DNA of 33,290 bases, from assembly GCA_003660235.1 (NCBI GenBank), contig QGON01000041.1:1-33290 (forward strand). Direction: 5' to 3'. The DNA is from a bacterium endosymbiont of Escarpia laminata. Lineage in GTDB: Bacteria; Pseudomonadota; Gammaproteobacteria; Chromatiales; Chromatiaceae. The notes below the pieces were generated by a model that did no database searches, had not been told where the DNA came from, and was given only the letters and a program-made list of their open reading frames with translations. The position numbers and the translations under genes are program-made. Shown here one piece after another: positions 3,883-21,260 of the stretch (position 1 is its first letter; each line of letters starts with the position of its first letter).

Positions 3883-4662
3883 ATGAAATGCCTGCTACCA
3901 TTATTCATTGCCGTTTTTGGTTTCATGAGCCAAGCTGTACACGCCGATGAAATTCCACATTCCAACGGTCTGCTCGACTACATGGGTGGCGAACTCGACT
4001 CCGAAACCGCCCATGTGATTGGAGGTAACTATCACTTCGGTCTTTCCGGCCCCTTTTCTATCCAGCTGGACGGTGCCTTGGGCGAGGTGGCCGATTCCAG
4101 CATGACCGGCTTCGGTATGCATCTCTATTGGCACGATTCCGAGGTCGGTTTGCTCGACGCCAACGCGTCCCGCCTGAATTGGAAGGGGAACGGACTCAAC
4201 CGCTACGCGCTGAATGGTAAATGGTACACATCAATCACCACCTTCAGCGGCAGCGTAGAGTACCAGAATGGAGATGTGGAGGAGAAGATCAATCTATTTG
4301 CCGGGTTGGATCTCTACCCGATAGATATTCTCTCTCTGAATGCCGGGGCGGCTCAGGTCGATGGTGAGGCGATGGCACAACTGGGTTTTGAACTGCAGCC
4401 TGCCCTAGACCGTTTACCGGAGCTGACACTGTTGGGCGGTGCAGCCAAGGGTGAGGGTGACTACAGCTACTATTTCCTTGGGCTGCGCTACTATTTTGGC
4501 GCCAATGCCCCGTTGATTCAGCGCCACCGGCGTGAATTTCCCCAATTCACTGGATCGCTACGCTATGGTAGCGGCATACATAGTCTGAAGACGGAGATTG
4601 AACGCCGGGAAGCACAGGTTGACGGTGGCGCTGCGAATCTTGATCAGGGGCCTCTCCTCTAG
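3883..4662 (+). CDS. Putative outer-membrane beta-barrel protein, copy 2
   Basis: A 259-residue near-twin of the gene at 2524. The residue changes are S6P and L15M in the signal peptide, D94N and S102N in the barrel, and one G-to-A in the tail. All catalytically neutral-looking positions and the full reading frame are kept, so both copies seem to be under selection or the duplication is very recent. It is convergent with the T6SS operon end (stop at 4938), with 275 bp between them. There is no evidence that it belongs to the T6SS beyond proximity. It could equally be a porin-like or adhesin-related barrel; the function is unknown. Confidence 0.8.
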   Translation: MKCLLPLFIAVFGFMSQAVHADEIPHSNGLLDYMGGELDSETAHVIGGNYHFGLSGPFSIQLDGALGEVADSSMTGFGMHLYWHDSEVGLLDANASRLNWKGNGLNRYALNGKWYTSITTFSGSVEYQNGDVEEKINLFAGLDLYPIDILSLNAGAAQVDGEAMAQLGFELQPALDRLPELTLLGGAAKGEGDYSYYFLGLRYYFGANAPLIQRHRREFPQFTGSLRYGSGIHSLKTEIERREAQVDGGAANLDQGPLL

Positions 4663-4937: not shown

Positions 4938-6872
4938 CTACAACTCACCAATCTGCTTGACTACCAGACGGGGTACCTGTTTGCGTAAAGCTTCCTCGGC
5001 GGCGGCTTTTGTCGCGAAGAGCCCGTAAAGAATCCGGTATTTGAAATCTTTATCGTTTGCGCTGACAACCTTTATGGTCAGGACCGAATGGCGCTCCATG
5101 AGATCTTCCAGTTTGTCCAGCCGGTTGAGGGCAAAGAGTTGCACCGTATAGTGGGCTGCGTCCTGCTGTGACAGCCACCAGTCTCCCCACCTCTCCAGGT
5201 CAACCCGATCGGGTTTGAGATAGATATCCCGAACGACGCGAAAACCGGTATAGCGATCGGCTTGGGTTTGGGGCAGGGCGGCCCTGGCGGATGAACGCAG
5301 GGCGCTGGCTGAGTCGTTATAACTGCCCCCACGTACCACACGCTGTTCCGAGTCGGGAACGAAACGGGGTTTGCCATCGCCCAGGCTGTCGATGTGATTT
5401 TTATGCCAGTTGTCCAACACCCACTCCCGAACATTGCCGGCCATGTGAAACAGGCCGAAGGCGTTGGGATTGGTGCGTTGTGGCTTGCTGGCTTGCGGTG
5501 AGTCCTCGCCGCCGTGACGGGCATAGTGGGCATAACTGCCGAGATCTGTCTCGGCTACGGGATAGGGGCCGGTGCTGCCCGCCCGCGCCGCATACTCCCA
5601 CTCCGCTTCGGTGGGGAGGCGATAGCCCTTGCCTGTCTGCTTCGAGAGCCAGACCGTGTAGCGTTTGGCGTCGTCCCAACTGATGTTGACTACAGAAAGA
5701 TCATCACGATTCCACGGCTGCTCGGGACACTCTCCGGTAACGGCCCGGCAGAACCTGGCGTACTCCCGATAGCTGACCTCATGGGTTGAGATGGTGAAAG
5801 GGTAGGCGATGTTGACTTGGTGTACGGGTTCTTCCTGCGTTTTATCGCTGCTGCCCATGGCAAAAAGTCCACCGGGAAGCACTGCTAGCCAAGGCCCGTT
5901 TTCACCTAATTGCAGACGATCCCGGCACTGAAGCCGATGTCGGCTGGAATACTTTGGACGACACCCTGGTGGAACGGGTATTTCCACATTTGTTGACTGT
6001 TTCCGTGAGGGGGAGGCTGCCGGTTTTTCTTCGATATTCTGTTTCACCGCCTCGCGGAAAACGGATTGTTTGTTCGGAGCTTCGATGGATGATGCCATCT
6101 TCTGTTTCGGGGCTACCGCAGTCACAGGTTTGGGTGGTGTCGGGGTGACAGGTTCGGGTGTGGTTTTGGGGGCCGGTTTTTCGACAGGAGTTTGGGGGGG
6201 GGAAACCGGGCGGAGTTTCTTCTCCGGGGTCGGCATGACAATCAGCGCTTTTTCCGCGATGTCGTTTTGCAGCTCTAATCGGCGGCCAAAATCCAATAGC
6301 GATTTCACCTTCTCCCCATTACTGCTGGTAGCCAGTCCGCGCTCCTCCTCAAGCCGTGACTGGAAATCGGTTTCCAGGTCGCGAAACCATCGTGATGATC
6401 TCGCCTCCGCTATAGCCTGTGCTCCCCGGCTTTGCCACTCTTGCAGAAGCTGCTCCCGGCTCTCCTCACGCCAGTCGTCTGATTGCACGAACGCTTGTAG
6501 TACCGTTGTTAGTGTCTCCTCCGTTTGCGGAATCATGGGGGGTGGGGGAGGTTCAACCATGGGGGGAGGCGGTTGTGTTTCAGCCGGCACAACAGGCAGT
6601 GTCGATGGCGGTTCCTCATCCCCGGTGAAGAGGAGAAACAGTCCGACCCCCGCCACCAGTAACAGACTACCGGCAGCGGCGGCGAGAGGGAGGATGGAAC
6701 GGTTTGTAACAGCGGGTGCTTTCCTATCAGAAGCCGGAGCAATCTTGTCCGTTGGAGACAGGGCATCCAACAACCCGGTACGCCGGGCGCGATAGCTCTC
6801 CCGGTCGATACGGCCCTCTGCGAATTCCCGTGCCAGTTGCCGTAGTCTGATTTTGGGCTGCGTGTCGCTCAT
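4938..6872 (-). CDS. T6SS-linked membrane protein with FGE-sulfatase-like and SPOR domains
   Basis: A 644-residue bitopic inner-membrane protein. It has a short charged cytoplasmic N-terminus (1-59), one transmembrane helix (about 60-83), and a periplasmic Pro-rich and helical linker (84-300). A FGE-sulfatase (SUMF1-like) domain spans about 328-549, with YRLPTEAEWEYAAR at 417, GNVREWV at 479, VRGGSY at 513 and GFRVVR at 543. A C-terminal SPOR-like domain (about 572-640, HYTVQLFALNRLDKLEDL, FKYRILYGLFATKAAAEEAL) is of the kind that binds glycan strands lacking stem peptides. Both cysteines of catalytic formylglycine-generating enzymes are replaced in the RGGSYNDSASAL region, so this is probably a binding domain. 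Last gene of the operon, 3 nt after ppkA. The coding strand has a C9 run at 6194-6202. Confidence 0.85.
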   Translation of the reverse strand: MSDTQPKIRLRQLAREFAEGRIDRESYRARRTGLLDALSPTDKIAPASDRKAPAVTNRSILPLAAAAGSLLLVAGVGLFLLFTGDEEPPSTLPVVPAETQPPPPMVEPPPPPMIPQTEETLTTVLQAFVQSDDWREESREQLLQEWQSRGAQAIAEARSSRWFRDLETDFQSRLEEERGLATSSNGEKVKSLLDFGRRLELQNDIAEKALIVMPTPEKKLRPVSPPQTPVEKPAPKTTPEPVTPTPPKPVTAVAPKQKMASSIEAPNKQSVFREAVKQNIEEKPAASPSRKQSTNVEIPVPPGCRPKYSSRHRLQCRDRLQLGENGPWLAVLPGGLFAMGSSDKTQEEPVHQVNIAYPFTISTHEVSYREYARFCRAVTGECPEQPWNRDDLSVVNISWDDAKRYTVWLSKQTGKGYRLPTEAEWEYAARAGSTGPYPVAETDLGSYAHYARHGGEDSPQASKPQRTNPNAFGLFHMAGNVREWVLDNWHKNHIDSLGDGKPRFVPDSEQRVVRGGSYNDSASALRSSARAALPQTQADRYTGFRVVRDIYLKPDRVDLERWGDWWLSQQDAAHYTVQLFALNRLDKLEDLMERHSVLTIKVVSANDKDFKYRILYGLFATKAAAEEALRKQVPRLVVKQIGEL

Positions 6873-6875
6873 AGC

Positions 6876-9800
6876 CTACCCTTTGATCTCACGCAGGAGC
6901 CGGAATCCAGTCGCCTTGTCGGCACCACCTCCGTGCTTCTGGCTGAGGTTGATACTGCAGGTGTCCGCTGGTGAGTTAAAGTGGCCGCCCCTGACCTTGG
7001 TCCCGTTTGGACTGTTTACCCACTCCTGCAGGTTGCCGACAAAATTGAACAGGCCCCAGGCGTTCTGCGGTGCCACATTGACTTCGATGGGCGCGCCACC
7101 CTTGACCACCGAACCACCACTGCGCAGCAGACAATTGAAGTCCGAACCGGTGGGCTGACGCCCCTTTGCCTTGGCGGCATGTAGCCATTCATCCTCCCGT
7201 GGCAGCCGGTAGGTGTGGCCGGTCTTCCCGGTCAGCCACTTGGCGTAGGCTTGAGCCGTCTGCAGTGAGATATTGTTCAAAGGCAACTTGGTATTCTTGC
7301 CTGAACGGGGTTTGCACTTGCCGCTCAACCGACAATAGGTATTGTAGTCGCCGACGGAAATCTCGTAGCGGCCGATGGCGTAGGGTGTGGCATTTCCTGC
7401 GCCGGCCGGTACCACCACCATAATGGGGCCGCGTCGCTTGCCGTCCAGCAGATCGTAACAGCGGAACTTGCTGCTGCGCTTGCCGTAACCGGCATATTTT
7501 GGATTACAGCGGTCTTTGGAGACGGGCTGTTGTAACGCCTTCAGTTTTTTCTTGAAGGTGGCATTGTCGTTCCAGAGTTCGATAGCCTGTTCCACCTTGG
7601 CGATGGCCTGTTTGCGATCCTTCGCCTTCAATGCTGTCTGGTGTTCGGAAAAGTGTTTTTTTGCCTGATCCTGGCGTGCCTTCAGGGTCTTCCCGAGACG
7701 TGCCAGATCGGGGTGTCCCGACTCCTTTTTCTTTGCCTCCTGCAACAGCTTTTGGGCCTCGCTGAGGCGTCCGGCGTCGACAGCCGTTAAACCGCGTGCA
7801 GCAATAATTGACGGTTTCAGCGGCTTGGTGATCACGACTTTTGTCAATGCCCGGTTATCGGGAAAGAGTTGTCTGGCCACCGCGAGCAGGGAGGTGGCAA
7901 TCGCCGGATTCTTTGCGTTTTCAATGCGCTTGATAAGCAGTGCGACATATTTTTTCTCGGCCACCGGGTACTGCTCGGGGTATTTTTGTTGCAGCTTCTG
8001 TAACTCGGCCTTCTGTGCGTGGAGTTTTTTCGGTGGCTGTTTTTTCAATGCCTTGCCAACCTTTTGAAATTCGACTTTGCGTTGGAAATCCCCCAGTTTT
8101 TCGGTAAGTTCCGGCATTTCCGGCGCAATCGTCAGACCGTGACGAACCAGTTTAATGGCTGCGGCAAAGTCATCTCTCTTAGCCCGCCTCTTTGCCAGAC
8201 GGAGATAGGCTCCACCGATGGCCTCGGGTCCGGTGACCTGAAGAAAAGGATCATCCGCCGGTAATTCTTGTTGCAACTCCTGCAACGTCTTGCTGGCCTG
8301 GGTGACGTCGTTTGCCTTGGCCTGGGTGAGCAGGGATTGTTTGGCACCCTCTACCCGGGCCAGCCGGATGCGTTCCCTGTTCTCTTGCTCCCAGGCTGAC
8401 TCCGCCGAGGTCAGCAGGCCGCGTTCCGCCTTGAAGCGGTTCGTCATGGTAGGGGCAAAACGTTTACCCTGACTCAACAGGGCACCCGCCTTGGCGAACT
8501 GGTCGGCGCTACGTTCTTTCTCTGCCTGCTGCAGGTAGAGTCGGCCGATTCTCTCTCTCTGTTTGCTGAGCCAGGGGTCGTCAGCCTCGATCAGGTTATC
8601 GAGACTGTTTAGTGCGGTGTTCAGTTCCCGTTCCCAGGCAGCAGTGAATTTTGCCCCGGTGGTCAACTGTTCGATGGTCTGTTTGCGCTCGGCGATCTCC
8701 TGAGCCAGCAGTTCCGGGGCGCGCTTGCCGTCGAGCAGACGTTTCTGCTGTCCCCGCATATAGTCGCTGGAGAGTTGGCCGGTAAACTGTTTCAACAGGG
8801 TATTGGCGTCGCTCCACGCTTCCTGGGCGATCAGGCGTTCAAGCTGCGGCTGAAGCAACTTGCGCAAACCCGCTTCAGCCTGGTTGAGCAGAGGATCGCG
8901 GGGTTGGATCAAACGCAGCTGCTCAAGTGGTTTTTCCAGTTCCCGATAGCCATCGAGCGTGTCGATCCCGGGGAGCCTCTGTTTGAGATCCCGATGCAGG
9001 TCGACCAACAGAGCCTGGGCCTCCTCTTTGTTGCGCATCAGATGGATTCTGGCCGCCAGATTCTCCAGCGCTATGTCGTCAGGGAACTGTTTCAGACCCG
9101 TTTCCGCCAGGATGGCGGCGCGGTCCACGTCGTTTTTCGCCAGGAGATCGCTTGCCTGTTGGCTGTAGGCATTGGCGAGACGTGGATCAGTGAGCAGCGG
9201 ATGTTCGGGATCAAGCTGGCGCAGGATCCCGAGAACATCTGCCATATCATCCATCACCGGATCGGGCAGCAGACGCCCGGCGGTCAGGTTTTCGTTGAAA
9301 CGGCTATCCAGGCGATTGAGCAGGTCGTTGCGGGCATCTTCCATACGCTGGGTGGTGCGAAAGACCTGGATCGAATCGGTAAAGAGGGCGCCGGCCAGGG
9401 CCATCTGCCGTTCTGCGGCGGCATAATCGTAACTCCCCTCCTGGGGGGAGAAGGCGGCATCAGCCAGACTGATGTAATAGGTGAGGATCGCCTCACGGGC
9501 GCTTGTGATCACTTCGCGCTTCTGATCTGGAGGGAGTTTTTCCGTTATTTGCAGGCCTTCCCGAACCTGATTCTGGGTGCCTTGGTTGATGATGCCGATG
9601 AGGCGGGCCACCGCTTTGGCGGATAATAACCGTTGGGATTCTGGACTGAGCTCAGTGGCGTTTTCCAGCAGCTGGGGGATTTGGGCAAGCTTGGCGCTCT
9701 CAATCTGTGCCGCCAGTTCGGTTGCGCGCTGCTTCTCCAGATAATCCGGCACCAGCAGCCAGCCCAGCAGTCCGGCACCCATCACGGAGAGTCCGGCAAT

Positions 9801-11192
9801 CAGCGGCAGGCGGGATTTCTTCGGGGTCAGTTCGTCGAGAAACTGTTCGACGCTGGGGGTACGGTCTTCACGTTCGAAGGCCAGCCCCCGCTGCAGCCCC
9901 TTCCACTGGCGCCGGCTCAGCCCCTTGACCCGTTCCGGGCGCAATCCCTTGTTTTTCGCCTCAGTGGCGGGCAGACGGCCGAAGGGGCGGCCGCCGGTGA
10001 AGAGTTCATAAGCGACGATGGCCAGGGCATAGATGTCGTCCCGGGGATCGGGATCCTTGCCCTCCAGCATTCCCAGGCTGGCGTAAGTGGGGGTAAGTGC
10101 CCCCAAGGTGCTGGCGTCAAAGGCGGTGACATCGCTGCCGGCCTGGGGGATCTTCGGCTTGGCCGCCCGGGCGATACCGAAATCGAACACCTTGACCTCG
10201 CCATCCTGGGTAAGAAAGACGTTGCCGGGTTTGAAGTCGGAGTGAATGATGCCTGGTTTGTGGTTATGGGCGGCCCCCAGTGCCAGACTCATCTCGGTGA
10301 TCAGTTTCAGCGCCTGCTCCGGCGGCATGCCGGTGCCGCGCAGCTTCTTGATTACCTTGTCGAGGGGGCTGCCCTCAAGGAACTCCATGGCAATGAAGTA
10401 GTTGCCGTGTTCGTCCTTGTCGAAGTCGAAGATGCCGATGACATTGGGGTGTTTCAGATCCTGGGCCTTGCGTGCCTCCCGCTGCAGTGCCATCAGGGAG
10501 GCGGCGTGCTGCTTGAAACTCTCGTTCAGCAGCTTGAGGGCCACATAGGGTTTGCGGTCCTTTGCCTCGACCTTGCGTTGATCCAGTGCCTTGAAGACCA
10601 CGCCCATGCCGCCGCGGCCGATCTCCTCCACCAGTTCGAAACGCTGGTTGAGAATGTCGCCTACCTCGGGTTCGTGGCTGATCCTGTGTGACGCAGTGGT
10701 GGTTCCCATACCGCTGGTATTGGCCCAGGAGGGAGTGTTGGAGGTCTGGGAGGGTGAGGTGGGTGGAGTTGTATGCCCGGTGGCAATCCTGGTGGCCTCG
10801 TCGTCGACAGGGGGGCGAGACGCTTGGCCGGTGGCGATGCGCGTCGCTTCGTCATTGATCACGGCTCCCTTGCCTGGGCTGGTGACTACCCGGGTCGCAT
10901 CGTCGCTGCCGACGATGCGGGTGCTCTCGTCCTGTTGGTTCTTTTCGTCAACGCCGGACGGTGGCACCGGGGTTTCCGCTTCGGCGGGGGCTGGTTTCTT
11001 GATCCGGGCCAGCAGCATGGCGTGGATCTGGGGCGGCAGATGTCCTGCGTGAAAGCCTTCGTCAATCGCCTCAATCAGTGCGGGAATCTGCTCTGGGGTC
11101 TCTTCGGCGATTCGGGACAACTGTTCGACCAGCTCGTCGGCGTTTATGCTGCCTTGACTGAGTCCGTTCAACAGGGTCCTGAAGTCTGTCAT
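6876..11192 (-). CDS. ppkA: T6SS Ser/Thr protein kinase PpkA with periplasmic FGE-like domain
   Basis: A 1438-residue transmembrane kinase. Residues 1-180 form a small helical domain plus a linker with four Asp/Glu-rich threonine motifs (T91, T100, T117, T134, pattern D/E-x-T-R-I/V). The kinase domain spans about 184-455: glycine loop GRGGMG at 192, K220, catalytic HSDFKPGNV at 317 and DFG at 337. A transmembrane helix lies near 463-480. The periplasmic part (481-1250) is helical and TPR-like, followed by a FGE-sulfatase-like domain (about 1255-1438; YRLPREDEW, GNLQEWV, VRGGHFN, GFRLLRE). In the FGE region one of two catalytic cysteines is kept, so enzymatic activity is unlikely. PpkA-type kinases switch the T6SS on by phosphorylating Fha or TssL. 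The start overlaps the pppA stop (ATGA). Confidence 0.93.
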   Translation of the reverse strand: MTDFRTLLNGLSQGSINADELVEQLSRIAEETPEQIPALIEAIDEGFHAGHLPPQIHAMLLARIKKPAPAEAETPVPPSGVDEKNQQDESTRIVGSDDATRVVTSPGKGAVINDEATRIATGQASRPPVDDEATRIATGHTTPPTSPSQTSNTPSWANTSGMGTTTASHRISHEPEVGDILNQRFELVEEIGRGGMGVVFKALDQRKVEAKDRKPYVALKLLNESFKQHAASLMALQREARKAQDLKHPNVIGIFDFDKDEHGNYFIAMEFLEGSPLDKVIKKLRGTGMPPEQALKLITEMSLALGAAHNHKPGIIHSDFKPGNVFLTQDGEVKVFDFGIARAAKPKIPQAGSDVTAFDASTLGALTPTYASLGMLEGKDPDPRDDIYALAIVAYELFTGGRPFGRLPATEAKNKGLRPERVKGLSRRQWKGLQRGLAFEREDRTPSVEQFLDELTPKKSRLPLIAGLSVMGAGLLGWLLVPDYLEKQRATELAAQIESAKLAQIPQLLENATELSPESQRLLSAKAVARLIGIINQGTQNQVREGLQITEKLPPDQKREVITSAREAILTYYISLADAAFSPQEGSYDYAAAERQMALAGALFTDSIQVFRTTQRMEDARNDLLNRLDSRFNENLTAGRLLPDPVMDDMADVLGILRQLDPEHPLLTDPRLANAYSQQASDLLAKNDVDRAAILAETGLKQFPDDIALENLAARIHLMRNKEEAQALLVDLHRDLKQRLPGIDTLDGYRELEKPLEQLRLIQPRDPLLNQAEAGLRKLLQPQLERLIAQEAWSDANTLLKQFTGQLSSDYMRGQQKRLLDGKRAPELLAQEIAERKQTIEQLTTGAKFTAAWERELNTALNSLDNLIEADDPWLSKQRERIGRLYLQQAEKERSADQFAKAGALLSQGKRFAPTMTNRFKAERGLLTSAESAWEQENRERIRLARVEGAKQSLLTQAKANDVTQASKTLQELQQELPADDPFLQVTGPEAIGGAYLRLAKRRAKRDDFAAAIKLVRHGLTIAPEMPELTEKLGDFQRKVEFQKVGKALKKQPPKKLHAQKAELQKLQQKYPEQYPVAEKKYVALLIKRIENAKNPAIATSLLAVARQLFPDNRALTKVVITKPLKPSIIAARGLTAVDAGRLSEAQKLLQEAKKKESGHPDLARLGKTLKARQDQAKKHFSEHQTALKAKDRKQAIAKVEQAIELWNDNATFKKKLKALQQPVSKDRCNPKYAGYGKRSSKFRCYDLLDGKRRGPIMVVVPAGAGNATPYAIGRYEISVGDYNTYCRLSGKCKPRSGKNTKLPLNNISLQTAQAYAKWLTGKTGHTYRLPREDEWLHAAKAKGRQPTGSDFNCLLRSGGSVVKGGAPIEVNVAPQNAWGLFNFVGNLQEWVNSPNGTKVRGGHFNSPADTCSINLSQKHGGGADKATGFRLLREIKG

Positions 11193-11944
11193 ATCCGTTC
11201 GGGCTGCCCCGTTTCGGCCCGGGCTACCACTACGGTGACGTTGTCCCTGGCCCCGCGCTCTAGGGCGAGGTCGATGAGCCTTTGACAGTAGTCCCCTGGG
11301 AGCAGCTGCATGGCCAGAATCTCCCCGATCTCCCGGTCTGCCACCTCCTTGTTGAGGCCGTCGCTGCAGAGCAGGTAGAGGTCGCCTGGCTCGACCCGGG
11401 TATCGTCCATGTCCACATAGAGCGCTTCCATCGCCCCCACCGCGCGGGTGACCACATTGGAGGCGGGATGGTTCTCCGCGTCCTCCCGCAGTAGCAGGCC
11501 CTCTGCCACCAGCTCCTCTACCTGGGTGTGATCCTGGGTCAGTTGGGTCAGTTCGCCATCGCGGAAACGGTAGCCGCGGCTGTCACCGGCCCAAAGCAGC
11601 AACAGATGGGTGGCATGGGCCAGCATCACCACTACAGTGGCGCCGATGGTGATATTGCCGCCACGGCGGGAGGCCTCCGCCAGCAGTTGCCGGTTGATGT
11701 CGAGCAGGGTCTCTTCGAGCAGGTCCACTTTTTTGCTCAGTGTTTCCGGCAGGTTCAGCTGCTGCATCCGCTCCACAATCATGCCGCTGGCCAGGTCGCC
11801 CGAACTGTGTCCCCCCATGCCGTCCGCCACCACCCAGAGGCCCGATTCAACCCGGTCGAGACAAGCATCCTCGTTCAGCTTGCGCACCTTGCCGACGTTG
11901 CTCAATGCGGTGGATTCCCAGTATACGGCGGTCGTCCCGTTCAT
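11189..11944 (-). CDS. pppA: T6SS PP2C-family protein phosphatase PppA
   Basis: A 251-residue PP2C (PPM) phosphatase, of normal family length. Metal-binding motifs are all present: NEDACLD, VVADGMGGHSSGDLASG, WAGDSRGYR, LLCSDGLNKEV and GARDNVTVVVA. It removes the phosphate that PpkA places on Fha or TssL and so turns secretion off. Its ATG overlaps the tagF stop (ATGA), and its own stop overlaps the ppkA start the same way, so kinase and phosphatase are made in linked amounts. It has no signal peptide or membrane segment and should act in the cytoplasm. Confidence 0.95.
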   Translation of the reverse strand: MNGTTAVYWESTALSNVGKVRKLNEDACLDRVESGLWVVADGMGGHSSGDLASGMIVERMQQLNLPETLSKKVDLLEETLLDINRQLLAEASRRGGNITIGATVVVMLAHATHLLLLWAGDSRGYRFRDGELTQLTQDHTQVEELVAEGLLLREDAENHPASNVVTRAVGAMEALYVDMDDTRVEPGDLYLLCSDGLNKEVADREIGEILAMQLLPGDYCQRLIDLALERGARDNVTVVVARAETGQPERI

Positions 11945-12759
11945 TTGGCTTCCGTTTCTGCGGGTTTGCTGGTCTCCGGTTCACTCCCGTTGTCACGCTC
12001 CAGGATGGGTGAGGGGGGCAGAGGAACCCGGTATTGACTCCAGTTCCAGTTGACCCAGTTACCATCGAGCAGGGCGGCAAAGCCCTGAATCGGCGGCAGG
12101 CCCTCGGAGATCAGCAGGGAGGGACGGACCCGTTCCGAGCCTTCGCTCCACCAGAGGCTGTAGGCGGAAAAGGCCCGTTCCAAAAGGGTCTGGTTGAGGG
12201 CGTCGCTCAGCGGGAATACGGATTCGAGGGAGGGGAGTTCGAACTGCCATGCCGCTCGTCCCATGCTATCGCTGCTGACGGCTCCGGGACGGGGGGGAAT
12301 CTCTGGTGGTGGCAGATCGGTCAGGGCCTGATCGAATGCCTCCAGGGGGATCTCTCCCGCCAGGGATCCCAATGCCAGCTCCTCACAGCGTGAAAACCAT
12401 CGGGCATCATCATGCAACAGGGCAGTCAGGTTGCCCCCAGGTGCCAGGGGGGCAGCCACCGTGAGTGGGAAGTAGCGGCCGACCCGATCCACGCTGGGCA
12501 TCAGGATGCCGCACCAGGCGGTCTCGCCGCATAATCCGGTTGAGAGGGCAAAGCGCCAGATCGGGCTGGTGAGGTAGATGTCGAGCCAATCCTCACCGAG
12601 TTGCTCACGGCTGTCCGCCACTGCGCTCTGCAGCCAGCGGTCCCAGGGGTCGGTAAAACCACGGGGCAGGCGGCGGGTGAGAAAGTCGCCGTGGCTCGGC
12701 AACTTGCCGAAAAAACCGCTGGCTGGTGAGACCTTTCTGGTTAGAGTTTCGCCGGACAA
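11941..12759 (-). CDS. tagF: T6SS accessory protein TagF
   Basis: A 272-residue protein with the family hallmark GFFGKLPSHGDFLTRRLPRG at residues 15-34, then DPWDRWLQ and the WRFALSTGLCGETAWCGIL core with SVDRVGRYFPL. TagF is a posttranslational repressor that keeps Fha inactive in Pseudomonas-type systems. The start must lie upstream of the GFFGKLP motif. No ATG is available there, and the TTG at 12759 has GGAGG seven bases before it, inside the end of tssM, so I choose it; the overlap with tssM is 19 nt. It is a free-standing TagF, not fused to PppA as in some other bacteria. Confidence 0.93.
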   Translation of the reverse strand: MSGETLTRKVSPASGFFGKLPSHGDFLTRRLPRGFTDPWDRWLQSAVADSREQLGEDWLDIYLTSPIWRFALSTGLCGETAWCGILMPSVDRVGRYFPLTVAAPLAPGGNLTALLHDDARWFSRCEELALGSLAGEIPLEAFDQALTDLPPPEIPPRPGAVSSDSMGRAAWQFELPSLESVFPLSDALNQTLLERAFSAYSLWWSEGSERVRPSLLISEGLPPIQGFAALLDGNWVNWNWSQYRVPLPPSPILERDNGSEPETSKPAETEAK

Positions 12760-15700
12760 CGGAATGCCTCCAGCTCAGGCATGCGGAACGGGTTGATGAT
12801 GCTGTCCGCCCGCAGTTCGAAACGGGCCGTTTGTCCCCCGAGGCTGAAGCTCACCAGGAAACGGTCGGCCATCGCGGTATCTTTTACCTCAGCCTGATCG
12901 AGCAGTTTGAACCAGGCCCAGACACCATCTTTGGTCTCGGCGGAGGTGCGGCCTTTCAGGTTCTCGAAGAGGATTCTGACCTGTCCGCTGGCGTCAGGTG
13001 CGGGCCACTGCATGCGGGTGCTGCGGGCCGGGCCGTGGCGGTAGCTCAACTTCTGACCGTCAAGATCGAGCAGGAATCGACTGACCTCTGCATCGAGGTA
13101 GGCGGGCTTGAGGCTGAAGGCGATCTTGGGCCGCTTGCCGCCTTCAGCGAAGAAGACCTCGCGGATACGGTCTGCGCGCTCAAATTGGCGCAGGGTGTTC
13201 GCCGATACGCCCATCGGATGGCCGCTGGCCTTTTTCCAGTGCCAGGGGCTGCGGTTGGTGTCGGCGAAGGGCTTGATGTTCTCCTTAAAGAATCTGTCCA
13301 TCACCTGGCCGGGGCCGAAGAAGCGTGCGAAGTCGCTTAGGGTGACCTCCTTCTCGGTCTCCTTGGAAAGTGGGTAGCGGCCCTGGATGCCGCGGCGGCA
13401 AAGCGGCAACACTTCCGCCTGCCAGCGTTTGGCCAGTTCGTTGCGGGAACTGCCCACCACCACGCCCCAGCCCCGTTCGGTGAGTGCGAAGATCCACTCG
13501 TTGACCGGGCGGGGCAGACGCTTGGCCCGGCGTTGCAATCGCTTGGTCGGATCTTTGGAGCCGGAGGCGCGCTGTTTGGCGGCGGCAAGTGCAGCGCCAC
13601 CGCCAGCGGACTCCAGGTCTGCCAGGGAGGCGTGCAGGTCGCCTAGATCACCAATCAGACCTTCCAGCGGTGCAGGGCTGTCACCCTGGGCCTTGGTCAG
13701 CTCGATGAGCCGTTCGAGGGTCTCCTCAACCTGCAGTGCAACCGGATCGAGGGATTTTCCAGGGGTCTCTACGCCGGACTTTCCGGCCGCCCGCATCAGC
13801 CGCTCCAGGCGGTTTTTCTTCTGGTAGGCGCTCGTGCTCAATTCAGCAGCAATTTCCGCTATCCCCTTGGCCTTGTCGGCGGCGGCAGCCATTTTTTCAT
13901 CAGCCGGGACTTTGCTCAGGGTGGTGTTGTCCGCCACCGCCCGCAGCAGCTTGCGCAGAGGAGAGGAGGGACCGGAGACCACGTCCATCACCTCCACGCT
14001 CTGGGGGAGTGAACGTATCTTGACGATACGCATCTCTTCGAGCAGACCGCGCCAGGCGGCAATATAGTCCTCTGCGTAGAGGTCTTTGACCGCCTTCACC
14101 AGGCGCAACGCCTCGGCATCGCTGATCTCGCCGGCGTCCGCATCAGCCAGGATCCAGTTTTCGCTCAGTGCCGCCTCCGCCTGTTCCAGGGTTTGAGGCA
14201 GAAAGATGCCGTAGAATCCCCGGCGGGTGTAGAGGACAGGGATACGTCTCTTCTCCAGGCTCCCTTCGTTCACGCCAAAGACCAGGTCGCCGTGACGCCC
14301 CAGGGCAGTGCCGAGCAGGAAGTCCTTGCTGCGATCCGCAGCCGCCCGCTGGCGTATCTGGTTGTAGATCTGCTGCGACAGGGGTATTTCGGTCAGTATC
14401 TCCCGTGCCTGGGCCACCAGCTTGAGGTTCATGGGCAGGGGTTTGAAACGGGTGGAGAGCAGGCTATCCAGGTGGTTCATCAATCGGTTCTGGGCCTCGC
14501 TGTCGCCAGCCAGCCGGTTGCCCCAGTCCACAGACATGAAGAGTTTGATCTGCTCTGGGTCCAGATGCTCGGGCCGGCCCAGCATCAGGTAGCTCTTCAA
14601 TGCTTCCCGCAGCAGCTCTTTCTGCTCCCGGTTTTGCAGATAATCTTCGAGCCGGGCGCCCAGGCTGTAGAGGAAACGCCCTTGCAGGGTTCGCCGGTAG
14701 GCAGAATCGGTGGCGGGGCCCAGTTTTTTGCCCTGATAGAGCCCCATGCCCATGAGAAGGGGAGTCTCTTCCGGATAGACTTCGGTGGCAGCACGCAGAT
14801 CGTCCAGGGGTAGCAGGAGTTTACGGAAATCGGTGACGCGGTAGTCCAGGTCGGTGATCGACTGTTGGTAGTTCGCCAGGTTATTTTCCAGATTGCCGAC
14901 TGTCACCTGGTTACGGGTGAAACTGGTGGTCCAGGCCAGCGCGGTGAGGATGGTCAGCAGGATCGCCCCGCTATAGGCGCCACGTTGCATCCAGGCCCGG
15001 CGCAGCTCAACCTTCTTGTCACTGCCGGCAAGGCTCGATTCCGGAAAGATGACGCTACGGAACAGATCCTGGATGAAGTAGCTGCGACCGCGCCCGCTGA
15101 AGGCAGGCAGCCGTATGCGGTCGAGGCCGAAGTTCTGGGCCAGGTTGCCCAGCAGCCGGTCGATGGGTGTGCCCTCCTGGGTGCCGCTGGTGAAGTAGAT
15201 GCCACGTAGTAGTTGCCGATCCTCGAAACGGCTGGGACGAAAAACGCCGTCGAGAAAGCGGCTGAGAGGCTCTTTCAGAGAGGCCATCTCCTGGGGAAAG
15301 GCGAATATCAGATTGCGTCGCTGGATGTCACGTTCCTGGTGCAGGCGGGCCAGCACCCGGTCGTTGAGGCGACGCAGCAGGGCATCGAATTCGTCGGGAA
15401 AACGGCTTACCGCCCCCTCGGTGCTCTCTGCCGCCTCCAGGGGCAGGGTCATGCCCCAAACCTGGGCCCGGTCCTCGCGGCCCATGTCCTCGAAGAATTC
15501 GGTGAAACCGCCGACCAGGTCGGATTTGGTGAACAGCATGTAAACCGGTGCCTTTACCCCCAGCCGTTCGTTCAGTTCCTGGATGCGGCTGCGCACAGAA
15601 CGGGCATGCAGGCTACGCTCCTCCTCGGTCTGCAACATCATGTCGGAGAGGCTGACCGCGATGAGGATGCCGTTGATGGGACGGCGCTTGCGGTGTTTTT

Positions 15701-16325
15701 TCAGCAGGTCGAGAAAGCCGAGCCAGGCCGCAGAGTCGACGGCCTCGTGGCTGTCCTGGGTGGTGTAGCGCCCGGCAGTATCGAGCAGCACTGCATTTTC
15801 GGTGAACCACCAGTCGCAGTTGCGGGTGCCGCCCACGCCACGGATGGCATCTTTGCCGAAGCGCTCGGAGAGCGGAACATTGAGTCCCGAGTTGATCAGG
15901 GCGGTGGTCTTGCCTGATCCCGGTGGACCGATGATGATGTACCAGGGCAGCTCGTAGAGGTACTGACTGCCGCTTTTTCCCTTGCCGCTCTTTTTCAACA
16001 CCCCCAGGGCTTCATCGAAACGCTCCTGCAGGATCGATAGCTCCTCTGCCGACTGTTCTGCACCCGGCGCCGCGTCGGACTGGCTGATCTCTTCCATCAT
16101 CGCCTTGTCGGCCTTCTGTGCCCGCAGCTGATGCCACAGCAGATAGAGTACCCATAACAGGAGGAGGAAGACGATCACCAGACCCCGCACGATCATGCCT
16201 TCCAGCGGCACCATGCCGGCGATGGCGATCAGGGGGCCGATGAACCAGATGATGATACTCAGGGCGATCAGCCCGAGCAGCTGGATTACCCAGCGCTTTT
16301 TGAAGAACCCTGCGACCTTACTCAT
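12741..16325 (-). CDS. tssM: T6SS inner-membrane protein TssM (IcmF)
   Basis: A 1194-residue core component, of normal length. Two N-terminal transmembrane helices (about 15-40 and 48-66) precede a cytoplasmic domain with Walker A GPPGSGKTT near residue 134 and the CDWWFTENAVLLDTAGRY region carrying the Walker B/DTAG motif. A third transmembrane helix (GAILLTILTALAWTTS) leads into the long periplasmic part that binds TssJ and spans toward the outer membrane. I prefer the ATG at 16325, which overlaps the tssL stop as TGATG, over the GTG at 16328. Together with TssL and TssJ it forms the trans-envelope complex that docks the baseplate. Walker residues are intact, so it may bind nucleotide. Confidence 0.96.
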   Translation of the reverse strand: MSKVAGFFKKRWVIQLLGLIALSIIIWFIGPLIAIAGMVPLEGMIVRGLVIVFLLLLWVLYLLWHQLRAQKADKAMMEEISQSDAAPGAEQSAEELSILQERFDEALGVLKKSGKGKSGSQYLYELPWYIIIGPPGSGKTTALINSGLNVPLSERFGKDAIRGVGGTRNCDWWFTENAVLLDTAGRYTTQDSHEAVDSAAWLGFLDLLKKHRKRRPINGILIAVSLSDMMLQTEEERSLHARSVRSRIQELNERLGVKAPVYMLFTKSDLVGGFTEFFEDMGREDRAQVWGMTLPLEAAESTEGAVSRFPDEFDALLRRLNDRVLARLHQERDIQRRNLIFAFPQEMASLKEPLSRFLDGVFRPSRFEDRQLLRGIYFTSGTQEGTPIDRLLGNLAQNFGLDRIRLPAFSGRGRSYFIQDLFRSVIFPESSLAGSDKKVELRRAWMQRGAYSGAILLTILTALAWTTSFTRNQVTVGNLENNLANYQQSITDLDYRVTDFRKLLLPLDDLRAATEVYPEETPLLMGMGLYQGKKLGPATDSAYRRTLQGRFLYSLGARLEDYLQNREQKELLREALKSYLMLGRPEHLDPEQIKLFMSVDWGNRLAGDSEAQNRLMNHLDSLLSTRFKPLPMNLKLVAQAREILTEIPLSQQIYNQIRQRAAADRSKDFLLGTALGRHGDLVFGVNEGSLEKRRIPVLYTRRGFYGIFLPQTLEQAEAALSENWILADADAGEISDAEALRLVKAVKDLYAEDYIAAWRGLLEEMRIVKIRSLPQSVEVMDVVSGPSSPLRKLLRAVADNTTLSKVPADEKMAAAADKAKGIAEIAAELSTSAYQKKNRLERLMRAAGKSGVETPGKSLDPVALQVEETLERLIELTKAQGDSPAPLEGLIGDLGDLHASLADLESAGGGAALAAAKQRASGSKDPTKRLQRRAKRLPRPVNEWIFALTERGWGVVVGSSRNELAKRWQAEVLPLCRRGIQGRYPLSKETEKEVTLSDFARFFGPGQVMDRFFKENIKPFADTNRSPWHWKKASGHPMGVSANTLRQFERADRIREVFFAEGGKRPKIAFSLKPAYLDAEVSRFLLDLDGQKLSYRHGPARSTRMQWPAPDASGQVRILFENLKGRTSAETKDGVWAWFKLLDQAEVKDTAMADRFLVSFSLGGQTARFELRADSIINPFRMPELEAFRCPAKL
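12757..12771 (-). promoter_or_regulatory. Ribosome-binding site deciding the TTG start of tagF
   Basis: On the coding strand GGAGG stands seven bases before TTG. It is embedded in the last codons of tssM (LEAFRCP). No ATG or GTG occurs in frame before the conserved N-terminal motif, so this rare-codon start is well supported. Confidence 0.7.
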
Positions 16326-17662
16326 CACTTCTCCAGGATTATCTCGACACGGCGGTTTCTGGCCCGGTTCTCCGACGAATCGTTGGGCACACGCGGTTCG
16401 TTATCGGCACGGCCATCGGCAACGATCTCACCCTTGATCGCAGCATCCTGGCGCAGGATCTCCGCCACCGACTCGGCCCGTCCCATGGAGAGGTGCCAGT
16501 TGGAGGGGAAGCGCAGGGTGTGGATCGGAATGTTGTCCGAGTGTCCGGCCACCAGGACAGGGCCGTCGACATTGGCCGCCAGGGCCTCGGCGATGCGTTG
16601 CAGCAAGGGTCTGAAACCCGGCTTCACCTGATCGCTGCCGGAGCCGAAGAGTCCCTTGTTGCGCAGGCGGATGACCACGTCGGAATCGTTGTTGATCAGC
16701 TCCACCAGTCCCTCCCGGACCTCAGGTTCGAGGAAGCCGGAGACCCGGTCGTAGAGGTCGTCCTTCACCGGTGGTGGAGGCGGTGGGGCGGAGTCGATCT
16801 CCGGTGGAGTCTCACGACCCACCGCGTAGACCTCTTTGAAAACGGGGGCGGAGGTGTCGTTGATGAAGTAGCTGAAGACCAGAAAGGTGCTTAGCAGCAG
16901 CACGCCGGAGAGTGCGGCCACCACCCAGAGCGGGATGTAGTGGCGCAGGGTGTTGTCGCCCATCTGTTCGCCGCGCCAGTGGACCGAAAGATCCTGCTCG
17001 TATTCACCGCGCTGCATGCGGATGGTGCGATAGACGCTGTCGCGGATCTGTTCCAGGGTCCGGCTGCCGCCTTCGATAATGCGGTATTTGCCCTCGAAGC
17101 CCATGCTCAGGCAGATATACATCAGCTCCAGCATCTCCAGAAAACGGGCCGGATCCTTGAGCATGCGCTCCAACATCTGGAAGAACTTCTCACCGCCCCA
17201 AGCCTCCTTGTGGAAGAGGATCAGCAGGCTCTCCGTGCTCCAGGGACTGTTGCTGCCCCAAGGGGTGTTGAGTACGGTTTCATCGATCACGGTGCAGAGT
17301 GTGTAGCGGGCGGCAAAGACGTTCTCCTGGTCGATCCCGGCGGAAACGGCCCGTCTTTCGAAGGCGCGCAGTTCGTCCTCCATGCGTCGGCGCAGGCCGT
17401 TGACGTCCGGGTGGCTGGGGGCGTTGCGCAGTTTGCCCAGCAGAGAGAGCAGGGGGGCGGCGGCGGTCACCAGGGGATTGAGGCCCCGGTCGACAGCATA
17501 GTGGGCGGGCGGTGGAACCGGCGTCCGGGGCTGCATTGGCGGTGGTTCGGTCCGGGGTGTGGCAGGCCCCGCCCCCGGCCTTCTGCCGCCGGGCATGGGA
17601 CGGATCACCGTACGGTCGCTGTCATCACCGTCCGCGTCGAAAAAGGGGTCGTCGGTAGTCAC
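16325..17662 (-). CDS. tssL: T6SS protein TssL (DotU) with C-terminal OmpA-like domain
   Basis: A 445-residue evolved TssL. The cytoplasmic DotU helical domain (about 60-235, with TLCTVIDETVLNTPWG and MYICLSMGFEGKYRI) is followed by a transmembrane helix at 241-266 and a Pro-rich periplasmic linker. An OmpA/peptidoglycan-binding domain (about 325-445) carries GHSDNIPI, NWHLSMGRAESVAEIL and NRARNRRVEI. The N-terminal segment DSDRTVIRPMPGG includes T18, matching the phosphothreonine site described for Agrobacterium TssL, where PpkA phosphorylates TssL and Fha binds it. The start is GTG, 6 nt after tssK, preceded by AAAGGGTGAT. The peptidoglycan-binding domain anchors the membrane complex. Confidence 0.95.
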   Translation of the reverse strand: MTTDDPFFDADGDDSDRTVIRPMPGGRRPGAGPATPRTEPPPMQPRTPVPPPAHYAVDRGLNPLVTAAAPLLSLLGKLRNAPSHPDVNGLRRRMEDELRAFERRAVSAGIDQENVFAARYTLCTVIDETVLNTPWGSNSPWSTESLLILFHKEAWGGEKFFQMLERMLKDPARFLEMLELMYICLSMGFEGKYRIIEGGSRTLEQIRDSVYRTIRMQRGEYEQDLSVHWRGEQMGDNTLRHYIPLWVVAALSGVLLLSTFLVFSYFINDTSAPVFKEVYAVGRETPPEIDSAPPPPPPVKDDLYDRVSGFLEPEVREGLVELINNDSDVVIRLRNKGLFGSGSDQVKPGFRPLLQRIAEALAANVDGPVLVAGHSDNIPIHTLRFPSNWHLSMGRAESVAEILRQDAAIKGEIVADGRADNEPRVPNDSSENRARNRRVEIILEK

Positions 17663-17668
17663 GGTTGA

Positions 17669-18778
17669 TCACCCTTTGATAGCCCAGAATTCGAGTTCGA
17701 GACCGGGAAACTCGCCACCGATGTGGAAGGCGAATCCGCCGGAACTCTTGAGCTGTTTCCATAGTTCGCTGCTGCGATCGAGTTCAAAATAGGTCAGTCC
17801 GGCATGGTAGGGAATCTGCCGGGGCGCAACCGGCAACGGCCGTAGCGCGACGCCTGACAGTTGCAGATTTACCAGTTCGCGGATCTGCTCCACCGGTCCG
17901 ATCTTGATCTGTGCCGGGAAACGGTTGCGCAGGGTCTCGGTAGGCATTTGGGAGCCCACGGCCAGCACGAAGTTGGCACTGTCGATCAGGCTGCGGTCGG
18001 CCAGCGTCGCGACCCGGATACCGTATTTACGCTCCTGCAGGGGGATCGCCACGGCGTTCTGTTCCAGCACCATGAAGTCGGCGATCTCTGCCGCCCCGCC
18101 CCGGCCGGAGGCGGTGATGCGCCCGGCGAGGGCTTCGCCCCGGTGGTGCAACAGCCCTTGCAATTCATCGAGAAAGCCGTGCAGCCGGCGATGGGCTCGG
18201 CAATCGAGGGCCGGAGGCAGGAAGGCTTCGTCGAGTAGCAGGTTCATGTCGGCCCGCAGCTCCACGATCCGTGCCAGAGGCATACAGATGAACTGGCTGC
18301 GGTCTTCGCCGTCGAGCATCAGACGCAGGCGCAGGCTGCCGGTCTGAACCAGGGCCTTGGTATCGGCGCCGTCGTTGCTGTCGTCCACCTCCTGCTCCCT
18401 GGGCAGGTAGCGGGCCAGCACCTCCGGGATGTCGTTGCGGTCGGCTTCCACGGCCCCCTGTCGGCGGGCGGGCAGGGCCAGGTGGATCAATGTGTCGTGG
18501 GTGTTCTCCGGTATCTCAAGTATGGGTGGAGGTGTGTCCTCTCCAGGGATGTCGAAAGGGGTGCCGTCGGGCAATACACCTTTGCAGTGGGAGACCGACA
18601 ATTTTCCCTGGGTCAGCAGATCCTGGTCGATGCTCAGTTCCCGGATGCCCCAGCCGTAGGCTCGGAGTGGCGCGCAGCGCGATTCCAGCAGGTTTTCCAG
18701 ATAGCGATCGTGCTGCTGGAAGTGGTGGGGCCGGAGGAACATGCCTTCCGACCAGATGATTTTGTTGCGCCAGGTCAT
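17669..18778 (-). CDS. tssK: T6SS baseplate protein TssK with apparent internal deletion
   Basis: TssK links the baseplate wedge to TssL/TssM. The start MTWRNKIIWSEGMFLRPHHF is classic, so I use the ATG at 18778; the TTG at 18796 is unlikely. The N-terminal shoulder domain and the C-terminal head (from VLEQNAVAIPLQERKYGIRV to the end) are normal. Between them, residue 236 (AAEIADFM) joins directly to residue 237 (VLEQNAV), whereas relatives have about 75 more residues there, forming helices of the trimer neck. The protein is 369 residues against about 440-450 normally. The frame is maintained across the junction near 18070. Either the gene is an in-frame deletion mutant or the assembly collapsed here. 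Confidence 0.92.
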   Translation of the reverse strand: MTWRNKIIWSEGMFLRPHHFQQHDRYLENLLESRCAPLRAYGWGIRELSIDQDLLTQGKLSVSHCKGVLPDGTPFDIPGEDTPPPILEIPENTHDTLIHLALPARRQGAVEADRNDIPEVLARYLPREQEVDDSNDGADTKALVQTGSLRLRLMLDGEDRSQFICMPLARIVELRADMNLLLDEAFLPPALDCRAHRRLHGFLDELQGLLHHRGEALAGRITASGRGGAAEIADFMVLEQNAVAIPLQERKYGIRVATLADRSLIDSANFVLAVGSQMPTETLRNRFPAQIKIGPVEQIRELVNLQLSGVALRPLPVAPRQIPYHAGLTYFELDRSSELWKQLKSSGGFAFHIGGEFPGLELEFWAIKG

Positions 18779-18792
18779 ATCCGGGTTCCGGG

Positions 18793-19317
18793 TCAAAAAT
18801 TGAAAAGTGGCTCTTGGGATTTCTTCTTTTGTTCTTCCTCTTCTGGAGACTTGGTCTCCGAAATGGAAACCTCACCGCGTCCGAGCAGGATGGTATAGGC
18901 GTTGACTTGATGGAGTGCGATGGGGGCAGTCGCTCGCCAGATAGCGTTGTTCAAGTCGCGGAATGCGGCCATGACGCCGATAAAACGGGTTTGGGGATCG
19001 AGTTCCCGCAGTAGCGGAAGTGTCTTGCCTGGCATGATCTTGAATTCATCCCTTGCCACCAGGTCGGCGCCCAGTACTGCGATGTCGTCGTCATACAAGG
19101 TAAAAAAATCGGTGTCTTCAAAGATACCCGGGGTCTTAAGCTCGTAGAAGCGGACCACCACCGGCGAAGGGGTGCCCTCGGCGTTAGGGTTGACATGGAG
19201 CGAGGCGAGGAATTTGGCGGCGAGCTGGGTCGGGGGAGGTGCCTTCTTTTCACCGCACCCGGCAAAGAAGAGGGAGAGTGTCAGGGTGATGAACAGAAGC
19301 AGATGGCGGAACCGCAT
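18793..19317 (-). CDS. tssJ: T6SS outer-membrane lipoprotein TssJ
   Basis: A 174-residue lipoprotein. MRFRHLLLFITLTLSLFFAG then C21 gives a signal peptide with lipobox FAGC. The mature part (VVVRFYELKTPGIFEDTDFF, LGADLVARDEFKIMPG, RFIGVMAAFRDLNNAIWR) has the transthyretin-like TssJ pattern. It sits in the outer membrane, with the soluble domain capping TssM. The ATG at 19317 is preceded by AAGGAG at six bases and is clearly right; the upstream frame to 19560 is non-coding. It is the first gene of the tightly packed operon. The C-terminal tail is an unusual acidic-to-basic stretch (SPEEEEQKKKSQEPLFNF), likely disordered. Confidence 0.94.
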   Translation of the reverse strand: MRFRHLLLFITLTLSLFFAGCGEKKAPPPTQLAAKFLASLHVNPNAEGTPSPVVVRFYELKTPGIFEDTDFFTLYDDDIAVLGADLVARDEFKIMPGKTLPLLRELDPQTRFIGVMAAFRDLNNAIWRATAPIALHQVNAYTILLGRGEVSISETKSPEEEEQKKKSQEPLFNF

Positions 19318-19485
19318 GTTTTCTCCTTGGATCATCAATACCCAAATCCCAAACCGGTTCGCTGACCGCGAAGCGGTGTTCAGGGTCTGTTGCTGGTATT
19401 CCCTAATACCTAGTCTACCCGGCACATTATCATTGCGCACTTTACGTTGATAGGTGAATCGCGGCGGGTACCCCTTTCGATAAAG

Positions 19486-19514
19486 AGTATAACGGATTCC
19501 CGGAAACGCACTCC
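19486..19514 (-). promoter_or_regulatory. Weak candidate promoter of the tssJ operon
   Basis: TATACT (coding strand, 19491 to 19486) is a good -10 box, but the sequence 17 bp upstream (GGAGTG) is a poor -35. The leader to tssJ would be about 160 nt. It could need an activator, or the operon may be read from tagH instead. The region 19318-19877 otherwise holds no gene. Confidence 0.3.
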
Positions 19515-19601
19515 CTAATTTAGCGATTAGTTGACAACAACAGATTACTGGCTTAATCAATTCAGAAAGTAATTATTCAGCTTGGCCCTGAATAGGTGCT
19601 T

Positions 19602-21176: not shown

Positions 21177-21260
21177 GGGTGGTAGAGACTGATGATCCAA
21201 TTGGGTTGGGACAATTTTGCTTCCATGATCCGGGTCAGGATCGGTATAACCAGACGGGGC

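What the first reader, a model, noticed from the sequence alone, without database searches (positions are those of the whole stretch)
4938..11192. Paired periplasmic FGE-like proteins, one with SPOR, as a possible peptidoglycan-sensing input to the T6SS kinase
PpkA ends in a FGE-sulfatase-like domain, and the next gene (3 nt away) encodes a second membrane protein with a paralogous FGE-like domain plus a SPOR domain. Both FGE domains are preceded by the same C-x-PKY...C-x-D-x-L motif. In the region of the two catalytic cysteines of true formylglycine-generating enzymes, PpkA keeps one and the SPOR protein keeps none, so they look like binding modules. No TagQRST genes are seen in the window. 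SPOR domains bind denuded glycan strands, so the pair could report cell-wall damage to the kinase. The sensing role is inference.
Basis: partly seen in the sequence, partly recalled or inferred. Interest (0 to 1): 0.78.

Follow-up and report, generated by a model that had tools for sequence, protein, structure and literature searches.

The report
Paired wall-facing partner of a kinase
Next to the kinase that can switch on a bacterial harpoon weapon sits a second membrane protein with a matching dead-enzyme domain and a cell-wall-binding domain; the same pair also occurs in bacteria where no such weapon was detected, so it looks like a portable envelope-sensing module, though what it senses is untested.

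Summary
PpkA (6876-11192) ends in an FGE-like domain; 3 nt downstream a single-pass membrane protein (4938-6872) carries a second FGE-like domain and a SPOR domain (28.4 bits, cut-off 21; nearest solved structure DamX). The partner has no FGE catalytic cysteine; PpkA's lone one is kept with another PpkA-only cysteine in 26 of 26 PpkA domains, so it is probably structural. In trees partner domains form one clade and PpkA domains another, both apart from 56 other FGE-like domains. Twelve partner loci were found (8 genera, 6 families; SPOR in 9); all 12 follow a PpkA-type FGE end. The reverse fails: of 24 FGE-PpkA loci that could be judged, 7 have the FGE partner, six of them fetched because of it; 12 of the other 17 have a short SHOCT-like gene there. 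Four genomes with the pair gave no match for TssM, TssB or TagF; in one, the locus follows a cyclase-FHA gene. So it is not a T6SS-only input. TagR of Pseudomonas-type clusters is itself FGE-like, a precedent for an FGE protein acting on PpkA, but this is not TagR. A dedicated envelope co-receptor is the best reading; denuded-glycan sensing is untested. Structure prediction did not finish.

The parts
6876..11192 (-). ppkA: Ser/Thr kinase, 1438 aa, one membrane span, C-terminal FGE-like domain
9939..10640 (-). kinase domain of PpkA (residues 185-418)
   Evidence: Pfam Pkinase 6e-32
9750..9806 (-). membrane span of PpkA (residues 463-481)
   Evidence: hydropathy
7515..9737 (-). stretch between span and FGE-like domain (residues 486-1226; limits approximate), weakly TPR-like
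   Evidence: TPR matches under the cut-off; homology to other FGE-PpkAs
6885..7514 (-). FGE-like domain of PpkA (residues 1227-1436)
   Evidence: clade of 26 PpkA domains
4938..6872 (-). partner gene: SHOCT-like segment, membrane span, conserved region, Pro-rich linker, FGE-like domain, SPOR; 644 aa
6759..6851 (-). SHOCT-like segment of the partner (residues 8-38)
   Evidence: alignment A4; the window protein has no Pfam SHOCT hit, a homologue in G314 has 27.4 bits against 27
6630..6686 (-). membrane span of the partner (residues 63-81)
   Evidence: hydropathy
6258..6509 (-). conserved region after the span (about residues 122-205), helical by look
   Evidence: aligned with L273, L073, L087, L084, L268, L280
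5223..5966 (-). FGE-like domain of the partner with the N-terminal Cys pair (residues 303-550)
   Evidence: Pfam 2.7e-44
4941..5189 (-). SPOR domain of the partner (residues 562-644; Pfam 573-632), 7 residues shorter than in its three nearest relatives
11189..11944 (-). pppA, PP2C phosphatase
11941..12759 (-). tagF
12741..16328 (-). tssM (IcmF)
16325..17662 (-). tssL with OmpA-type domain
17669..18796 (-). tssK, 375 aa, lacks about 75 internal residues found in relatives
18793..19560 (-). tssJ lipoprotein
19878..21200 (-). fha (FHA + T6SS_FHA_C), the expected reader of PpkA phosphorylation
   Evidence: role from the T6SS literature

Best explanation
The partner and the periplasmic end of PpkA form a two-part, inner-membrane-anchored receptor. 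Each brings an FGE-fold domain without the FGE catalytic pair; the two domains are neighbouring families and most likely bind each other or a common ligand in the periplasm and so set the dimerisation, stability or activity of the kinase inside. The SPOR domain, where present, ties the receptor to peptidoglycan, probably to glycan stripped of peptides, so that the state of the wall can bias the switch. PpkA then phosphorylates an FHA-domain output: in the window the T6SS Fha, countered by PppA and TagF. It works like TagR acting on PpkA but is not TagR, and it is portable: the same kinase-phosphatase-partner set sits beside a cyclase-FHA gene in a genome without T6SS markers. Shown: architecture, pairing, two related clades, SPOR match and conserved residues, shared cysteines, presence where T6SS markers were not found. 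Inferred: topology, binding between the two, control of the kinase, glycan binding, the cue.
For: Adjacent genes, 3 nt apart; the consensus scan shows no minus-strand promoter-like or terminator-like site between them (weak evidence). Partner with PpkA-type FGE end in 12 of 12 loci; in the window's genus 4 of 4 tagF-positive genomes have it and 2 of 2 tagF-negative lack it. Partner clade 99/93, PpkA clade 100/99, both apart from 56 other FGE domains 99/95. Shared cysteines. Distances of the two domains track each other over 11 pairs, r 0.91, 0 of 5000 permutations as high (species tree not controlled; G142 left out). TagR, needed for T6SS assembly in P. aeruginosa upstream of PpkA (passages of PMC6657622, and PMC6082577), has the same fold family. 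SPOR: match at E 0.1 or better in 9 of 9 cut-out C-termini, DamX profile match 5.6e-6, the place of RlpA Q270 is Gln in 8 of 9 and the place of R309 is Arg or Lys in 8 of 9 (residue roles from passages of PMC6895207; placed by eye; R302 and R311 not placed).
Against: No interaction, localisation or activity data. SPOR is missing in 3 of 12 partners, so wall binding cannot be essential to the pair. 17 of 24 judged FGE-PpkA loci have no FGE partner, so the PpkA domain can work without it. Matching distances are also expected from shared descent. SPOR of G439 and G327 was not seen by Pfam in the whole-protein scan at 0.01, and that of G859 is under the cut-off. The window copy of SPOR lacks 7 residues that its nearest relatives keep. 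No structure model was obtained.
Confidence: 0.5

Rival explanations
1. Placement rather than sensing: SPOR holds PpkA (and so the T6SS or another output) at the septum or at wall-remodelling sites, and the kinase is controlled by something else.
For: Nearest solved SPOR is DamX; SPOR proteins act at division sites (abstract starts; DamX localisation recalled). In Acidovorax TssW is needed for the localisation of PpkA (passages of PMC12607579).
Against: SPOR lacking in 3 of 12 partners. Nothing tested here separates placement from sensing.
Confidence: 0.2
2. Stabiliser, like RtkS of Serratia: the partner is a constitutive subunit needed for PpkA stability, with no cue.
For: RtkS binds the periplasmic part of PpkA and PpkA level falls without it (passages of PMC6082577). 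The gene next to FGE-PpkA is often only a small SHOCT-like one.
Against: Does not explain the added FGE and SPOR domains or their conserved residues.
Confidence: 0.2
3. The FGE-like domains are enzymes of another kind (PvdO- or sulfoxide-synthase-like).
For: Best PDB sequence match of the partner is PvdO (1.6e-30); PvdO model match in NCBIfam.
Against: Match is far under NCBIfam's PvdO cut-off (135.8 against 500 bits); the PpkA domain matches the PvdO model with 31.7 bits only. Active-site residues of PvdO-like enzymes were not examined.
Confidence: 0.05
4. The partner is a true TagR that lost TagQST and gained an anchor and SPOR.
For: Same fold family, similar place downstream of ppkA.
Against: The 4 TagR rows stand apart on a long branch in the quick tree (their place there is unsure) and have gaps at the two N-terminal cysteine columns. 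The ppkA of L197 has no FGE domain and its kinase domain is 33% identical to the window's.
Confidence: 0.05

Closest known systems
TagR of the P. aeruginosa H1-T6SS (TagQRST-PpkA)
   Same: FGE-fold protein encoded downstream of ppkA; acts upstream of PpkA
   Different: no SHOCT-like segment, no SPOR; reported as periplasmic, recruited by the outer-membrane lipoprotein TagQ; separate in the tree; its PpkA has no FGE end but a VWA domain (passage of PMC1262709; in L197 a VWA match under the cut-off)
RtkS of Serratia marcescens
   Same: second protein acting on the periplasmic part of PpkA
   Different: reported as unlike known signalling proteins (passage of PMC6082577); not compared by sequence here
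DamX and other SPOR proteins
   Same: C-terminal SPOR; DamX is the nearest solved SPOR; anchor and long linker recalled
   Different: no FGE domain, division proteins, not paired with a kinase (recalled)
Ser/Thr kinases with C-terminal FGE/DUF323 domain
   Same: kinase plus FGE-like domain in one chain, noted in 2005 for chlamydial kinases (passage of PMC1262709)
   Different: no mention of a second FGE protein with SPOR in the passages seen
PvdO and FGE enzymes
   Same: fold family
   Different: FGE catalytic cysteine pair absent; membrane-anchored, kinase-linked

Membership tests
T6SS PpkA (threonine phosphorylation pathway) | kinase domain, single span, next to pppA, tagF and fha in a T6SS cluster | tested here: met
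T6SS PpkA (threonine phosphorylation pathway) | phosphorylates Fha and activates secretion | not testable with these tools
   none
TagR | FGE-like domain, gene downstream of ppkA | tested here: met
TagR | soluble or outer-membrane-associated protein without inner-membrane anchor | tested here: not met
   span at 63-81 after a charged N-terminal segment, hydropathy only
TagR | groups with TagR sequences | tested here: not met
   quick tree, 4 TagR rows apart
TagR | TagQ, TagS, TagT partners | tested here: inconclusive
   none recognised in the window; TagQ search of the genome gave a 54-residue partial hit, E 9.2e-5; TagS and TagT not searched genome-wide
Formylglycine-generating enzyme | two catalytic cysteines | tested here: not met
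   positions of the catalytic pair recalled
SPOR domain | Pfam model over its cut-off | tested here: met
   28.4 bits against 21
SPOR domain | SPOR fold | not tested
   structure job not finished
SPOR domain | binds denuded glycan | not testable with these tools
   two contact places mostly kept
SHOCT domain | Pfam model over its cut-off | tested here: not met
   no SHOCT hit in the window protein at 0.1; one homologue, G314, passes with 27.4 against 27
RtkS | sequence relationship | not tested
   no RtkS sequence was at hand

The most novel reading that the evidence does not exclude
A portable envelope-sensing kinase module: FGE-tipped kinase, PP2C phosphatase and an FGE-SPOR co-receptor read the peptidoglycan state and are wired by FHA domains to different outputs, T6SS firing in some bacteria and a class III nucleotide cyclase in others.
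Probability: 0.3. Interest if true: 0.78.

Novelty: new variant of a known kind. Interest (0 to 1): 0.6.

Why it matters
What makes a T6SS kinase fire in bacteria without TagQRST is largely open. This gives a concrete candidate receptor with a testable ligand class (peptidoglycan glycan), links TagR and FGE-tipped kinases through one fold, and points to natural versions, in genomes without detected T6SS genes, in which the receptor can be studied apart from the secretion machine.

Tried and rejected

Ideas dropped: that the partner follows every FGE-bearing ppkA; that the partner is TagR; a T6SS-only role. Weakened: that PpkA keeps half an active site. A ShlB-type gene next to FGE-PpkA clusters looked like a pattern, but in 135 loci strong matches came only from G360 (L073, L288) and G358 (L095), with a weak one in L082, and the stretches of the window's relatives do not reach that far; it is only noted.

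Corrections to my notes: entry 3 gives 0/59 for both N-terminal cysteines in other FGE domains; one search shows that in full only for the first. Entry 2 calls the short TssK a possible frameshift; one search shows an in-frame absence of about 75 residues. In the first tree the row gen_L013, labelled generic, was the G142 partner itself; it was removed later with three long-branched generic rows, and the TagR rows were left out. About 116 generic domains were at hand (4, 39 and 73's count); 60 went into and 56 into. One of the 5 TagR regions (L210) was not put into the tree.

Literature: I saw no held paper that describes an FGE domain in the T6SS PpkA or a SPOR protein acting on it. Searches: listings of the best rows only; no paper found. 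Hsu 2009 and Casabona 2013, the TagR papers, are not held, so whether they name the TagR fold could not be checked.
Full report
What is there. The window holds part of a T6SS cluster on the minus strand: fha, tssJ, tssK, tssL, tssM, tagF, pppA, ppkA and, 3 nt after ppkA, the partner gene. TssB matches lie on another contig of the same genome. PpkA has a kinase domain, one span (463-481), a long weakly TPR-like stretch and a C-terminal FGE-like domain. The partner has a SHOCT-like charged N-terminus, one span (63-81), a conserved region, a Pro-rich linker, an FGE-like domain and a SPOR domain. That the C-terminal parts lie in the periplasm is inferred from hydropathy and domain type.

SPOR. Pfam scores 28.4 bits (cut-off 21) in the window, 30.6, 28.8 and 26.4 in three relatives, 21.1 in G314 and 17.0, under the cut-off, in G859; the whole-protein scans of G439 and G327 gave no SPOR hit at 0.01. 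Cut out, 9 of 9 C-termini match SPOR at E 0.1 or better. A profile of the nine finds DamX at 5.6e-6 and nothing else better than 0.27 among solved structures. The place of the glycan-contacting Gln of RlpA is Gln in 8 of 9 (Ser in G142), the place of its R309 is Arg or Lys in 8 of 9 (Leu in G859) (residue roles from passages of PMC6895207; placed by eye, the other two arginines not placed). The window copy lacks 7 residues that its three nearest relatives have.

The FGE-like domains do not carry the FGE catalytic pair. The partner has no cysteine in that region; PpkA has one, present in 26 of 26 PpkA domains together with a further PpkA-only cysteine, also 26 of 26. At its column 5 of 56 other FGE-like domains have Cys, so lack of cysteine there is no special sign. 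Two N-terminal cysteines are shared by partners (12 of 12 each) and PpkA domains (23 and 25 of 26, the rest gaps).

One family each. A careful tree of 94 domains puts the 12 partners together (99/93), the 26 PpkA domains together (100/99) and 56 other FGE domains on the far side of a branch (99/95) (the smaller tree agrees: 96/86, 100/99, 99/89). If the root lies among the others, partner and PpkA domains share an ancestor. The others come from the window's order and from named loci; wider sampling could change this.

Co-occurrence. Searching the 210 held genomes of the window's order, full-length matches over 300 bits came from 6: four of the window's genus, G142 and G859. Searching 369 genomes of the class at 1e-72 gave 9, of which 7 are partners, the window's own included: G360, G439, G327, G314, G524, G406 besides; G370 and G239 are ordinary FGE proteins. 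So 12 loci, 8 genera, 6 families by the tool's group codes. All 12 have a PpkA-type FGE end directly upstream on the same strand; in G142 that end is split over two ORFs, in G327 only 154 residues lie inside the fetched stretch. The kinase domain was seen on the same contig in 9 of 12 (window, L039-L042, L073, L296, L297, L298; for the last three the reading frame agrees with that of the FGE end in the overlapping stretch); in G859 a kinase lies on another contig; in G327 and G406 I did not look further upstream. SPOR is present in 9 of 12 and absent in G360, G524, G406. In the window's genus 4 of 4 tagF-positive genomes have the partner and 2 of 2 tagF-negative do not.

The other direction. 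Around tagF I read 40 regions from the class (of 49 places in 46 genomes), 60 from the order of a Marinobacterium genome, one of them from a further Pseudomonadales genome, 19 more from the window's order plus the G859 partner contig, and four relatives fetched for their partner. FGE-bearing PpkA occurs in 11 of 40, in 6 of 60 (one, L202, cut by the edge), and in 8 loci of the window's order. Leaving out L202, 24 can be judged: 7 have the FGE partner (window, L039-L042, L273, L073). Six of these seven were fetched because of the partner or are the window; of the other 18, one has it. A SHOCT-like gene or N-terminus stands directly downstream in 18 of 24; not found in L078, L083, L183, L188, L204, nor in the listed G142 ORF. 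Nine are free proteins of 59-94 residues; G115, G051 and G246 have a span and the conserved region, 202-229 residues; G332 has the same, 211 residues, behind a PpkA without FGE. So the partner looks like a stepwise extension of a small gene: SHOCT-like, then span and conserved region, then FGE, then SPOR. The order of steps is inference.

Where T6SS was not found. G439, G327, G314 and G524 (94-98% complete) gave no match for TssM, TssB or TagF (the same class sample), yet carry the pair. In G439, G524 and G314 pppA lies just before the kinase; in G439 the gene before is a class III cyclase fused to FHA, in G524 an ORF with FHA cut by the edge. Their kinase domains are 47.5-54% identical to the window's; two T6SS PpkAs of other families have 50.5 and 55.6%, two of the window's family 75%, and the Pseudomonas-type PpkA 33%. 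G406 has TssM and TssB on one contig and the pair on another. So the kinase-partner set is not bound to T6SS, and the FHA protein is the likely exchangeable reader. That the cyclase is the output is inference from gene order in one genome. Absence rests on three marker families and drafts that are not complete.

TagR. In L197, the one read in full, the order is ppkA, a gene with a nucleotide-binding motif, a membrane protein, the FGE-like protein of 586 aa and a lipoprotein-like gene, which fits tagT-S-R-Q (gene numbers in a passage of PMC6657622; domain types recalled). Pfam gives FGE-sulfatase 3.7e-26 and 3e-27 for two of the five. TagR and TagQ are needed for TssK assembly in P. aeruginosa, and the TagQRST-PpkA pathway answers outer-membrane damage (passages of PMC6657622, PMC11881912, PMC6082577). 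This makes an FGE protein acting upstream of PpkA a known kind of thing. The window's partner differs by anchor, SPOR, cysteines and place in the tree.

How it most likely works. See best explanation. Pairing and clade structure are well supported; binding and control of the kinase are likely; wall sensing is plausible but open, with placement at the septum as the nearest rival. Patchy SPOR speaks against wall binding being the core function.

Verdict. A real and unusual receptor-like pair, a new variant of the TagR-PpkA theme, wider than T6SS. Interest 0.6.

Noticed in passing
17669-18796 (tssK, gap at about 18068): TssK lacks about 75 internal residues in frame compared with L040 (375 against 450 aa; the other two relatives of the genus have 444-450 aa); either a real deletion, which may disable the baseplate, or an assembly error.
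   Followed up: partly
4941-5189: The window's SPOR domain lacks 7 residues (21 nt, in frame) that its three nearest relatives keep.
   Followed up: partly
L039:16028-16966: In G154 a second copy of the partner's C-terminal part (end of FGE plus SPOR) follows the partner, with a run of unread bases before it.
   Followed up: no
21454-23487 and 23718-33290, + strand: A ShlB/FhaC-type secretion gene and a very long ORF with DUF5649 repeats stand beside fha; similar ShlB genes stand beside FGE-PpkA clusters in G360 (L073) and G358 (L095).
   Followed up: partly
L296:1096-2001: Class III cyclase-FHA fusion directly before pppA-ppkA-partner in G439, where no T6SS marker was found.
   Followed up: partly
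L186, L190, L196, L207, L229: Small proteins of 94-98 residues with the SHOCT-like motif and a C-terminal hydrophobic stretch directly follow pppA in T6SS clusters where no kinase match was seen in the fetched stretch.
   Followed up: no
L054, L056, L057 (own genome): Three other FGE-like domains of this genome are fused to STAND or NACHT ATPases.
   Followed up: no
2524-3303 and 3883-4662, + strand: Two ORFs of equal length (259 aa) without Pfam match at 0.001 lie side by side downstream of the partner; possible duplicates, not compared.
   Followed up: no
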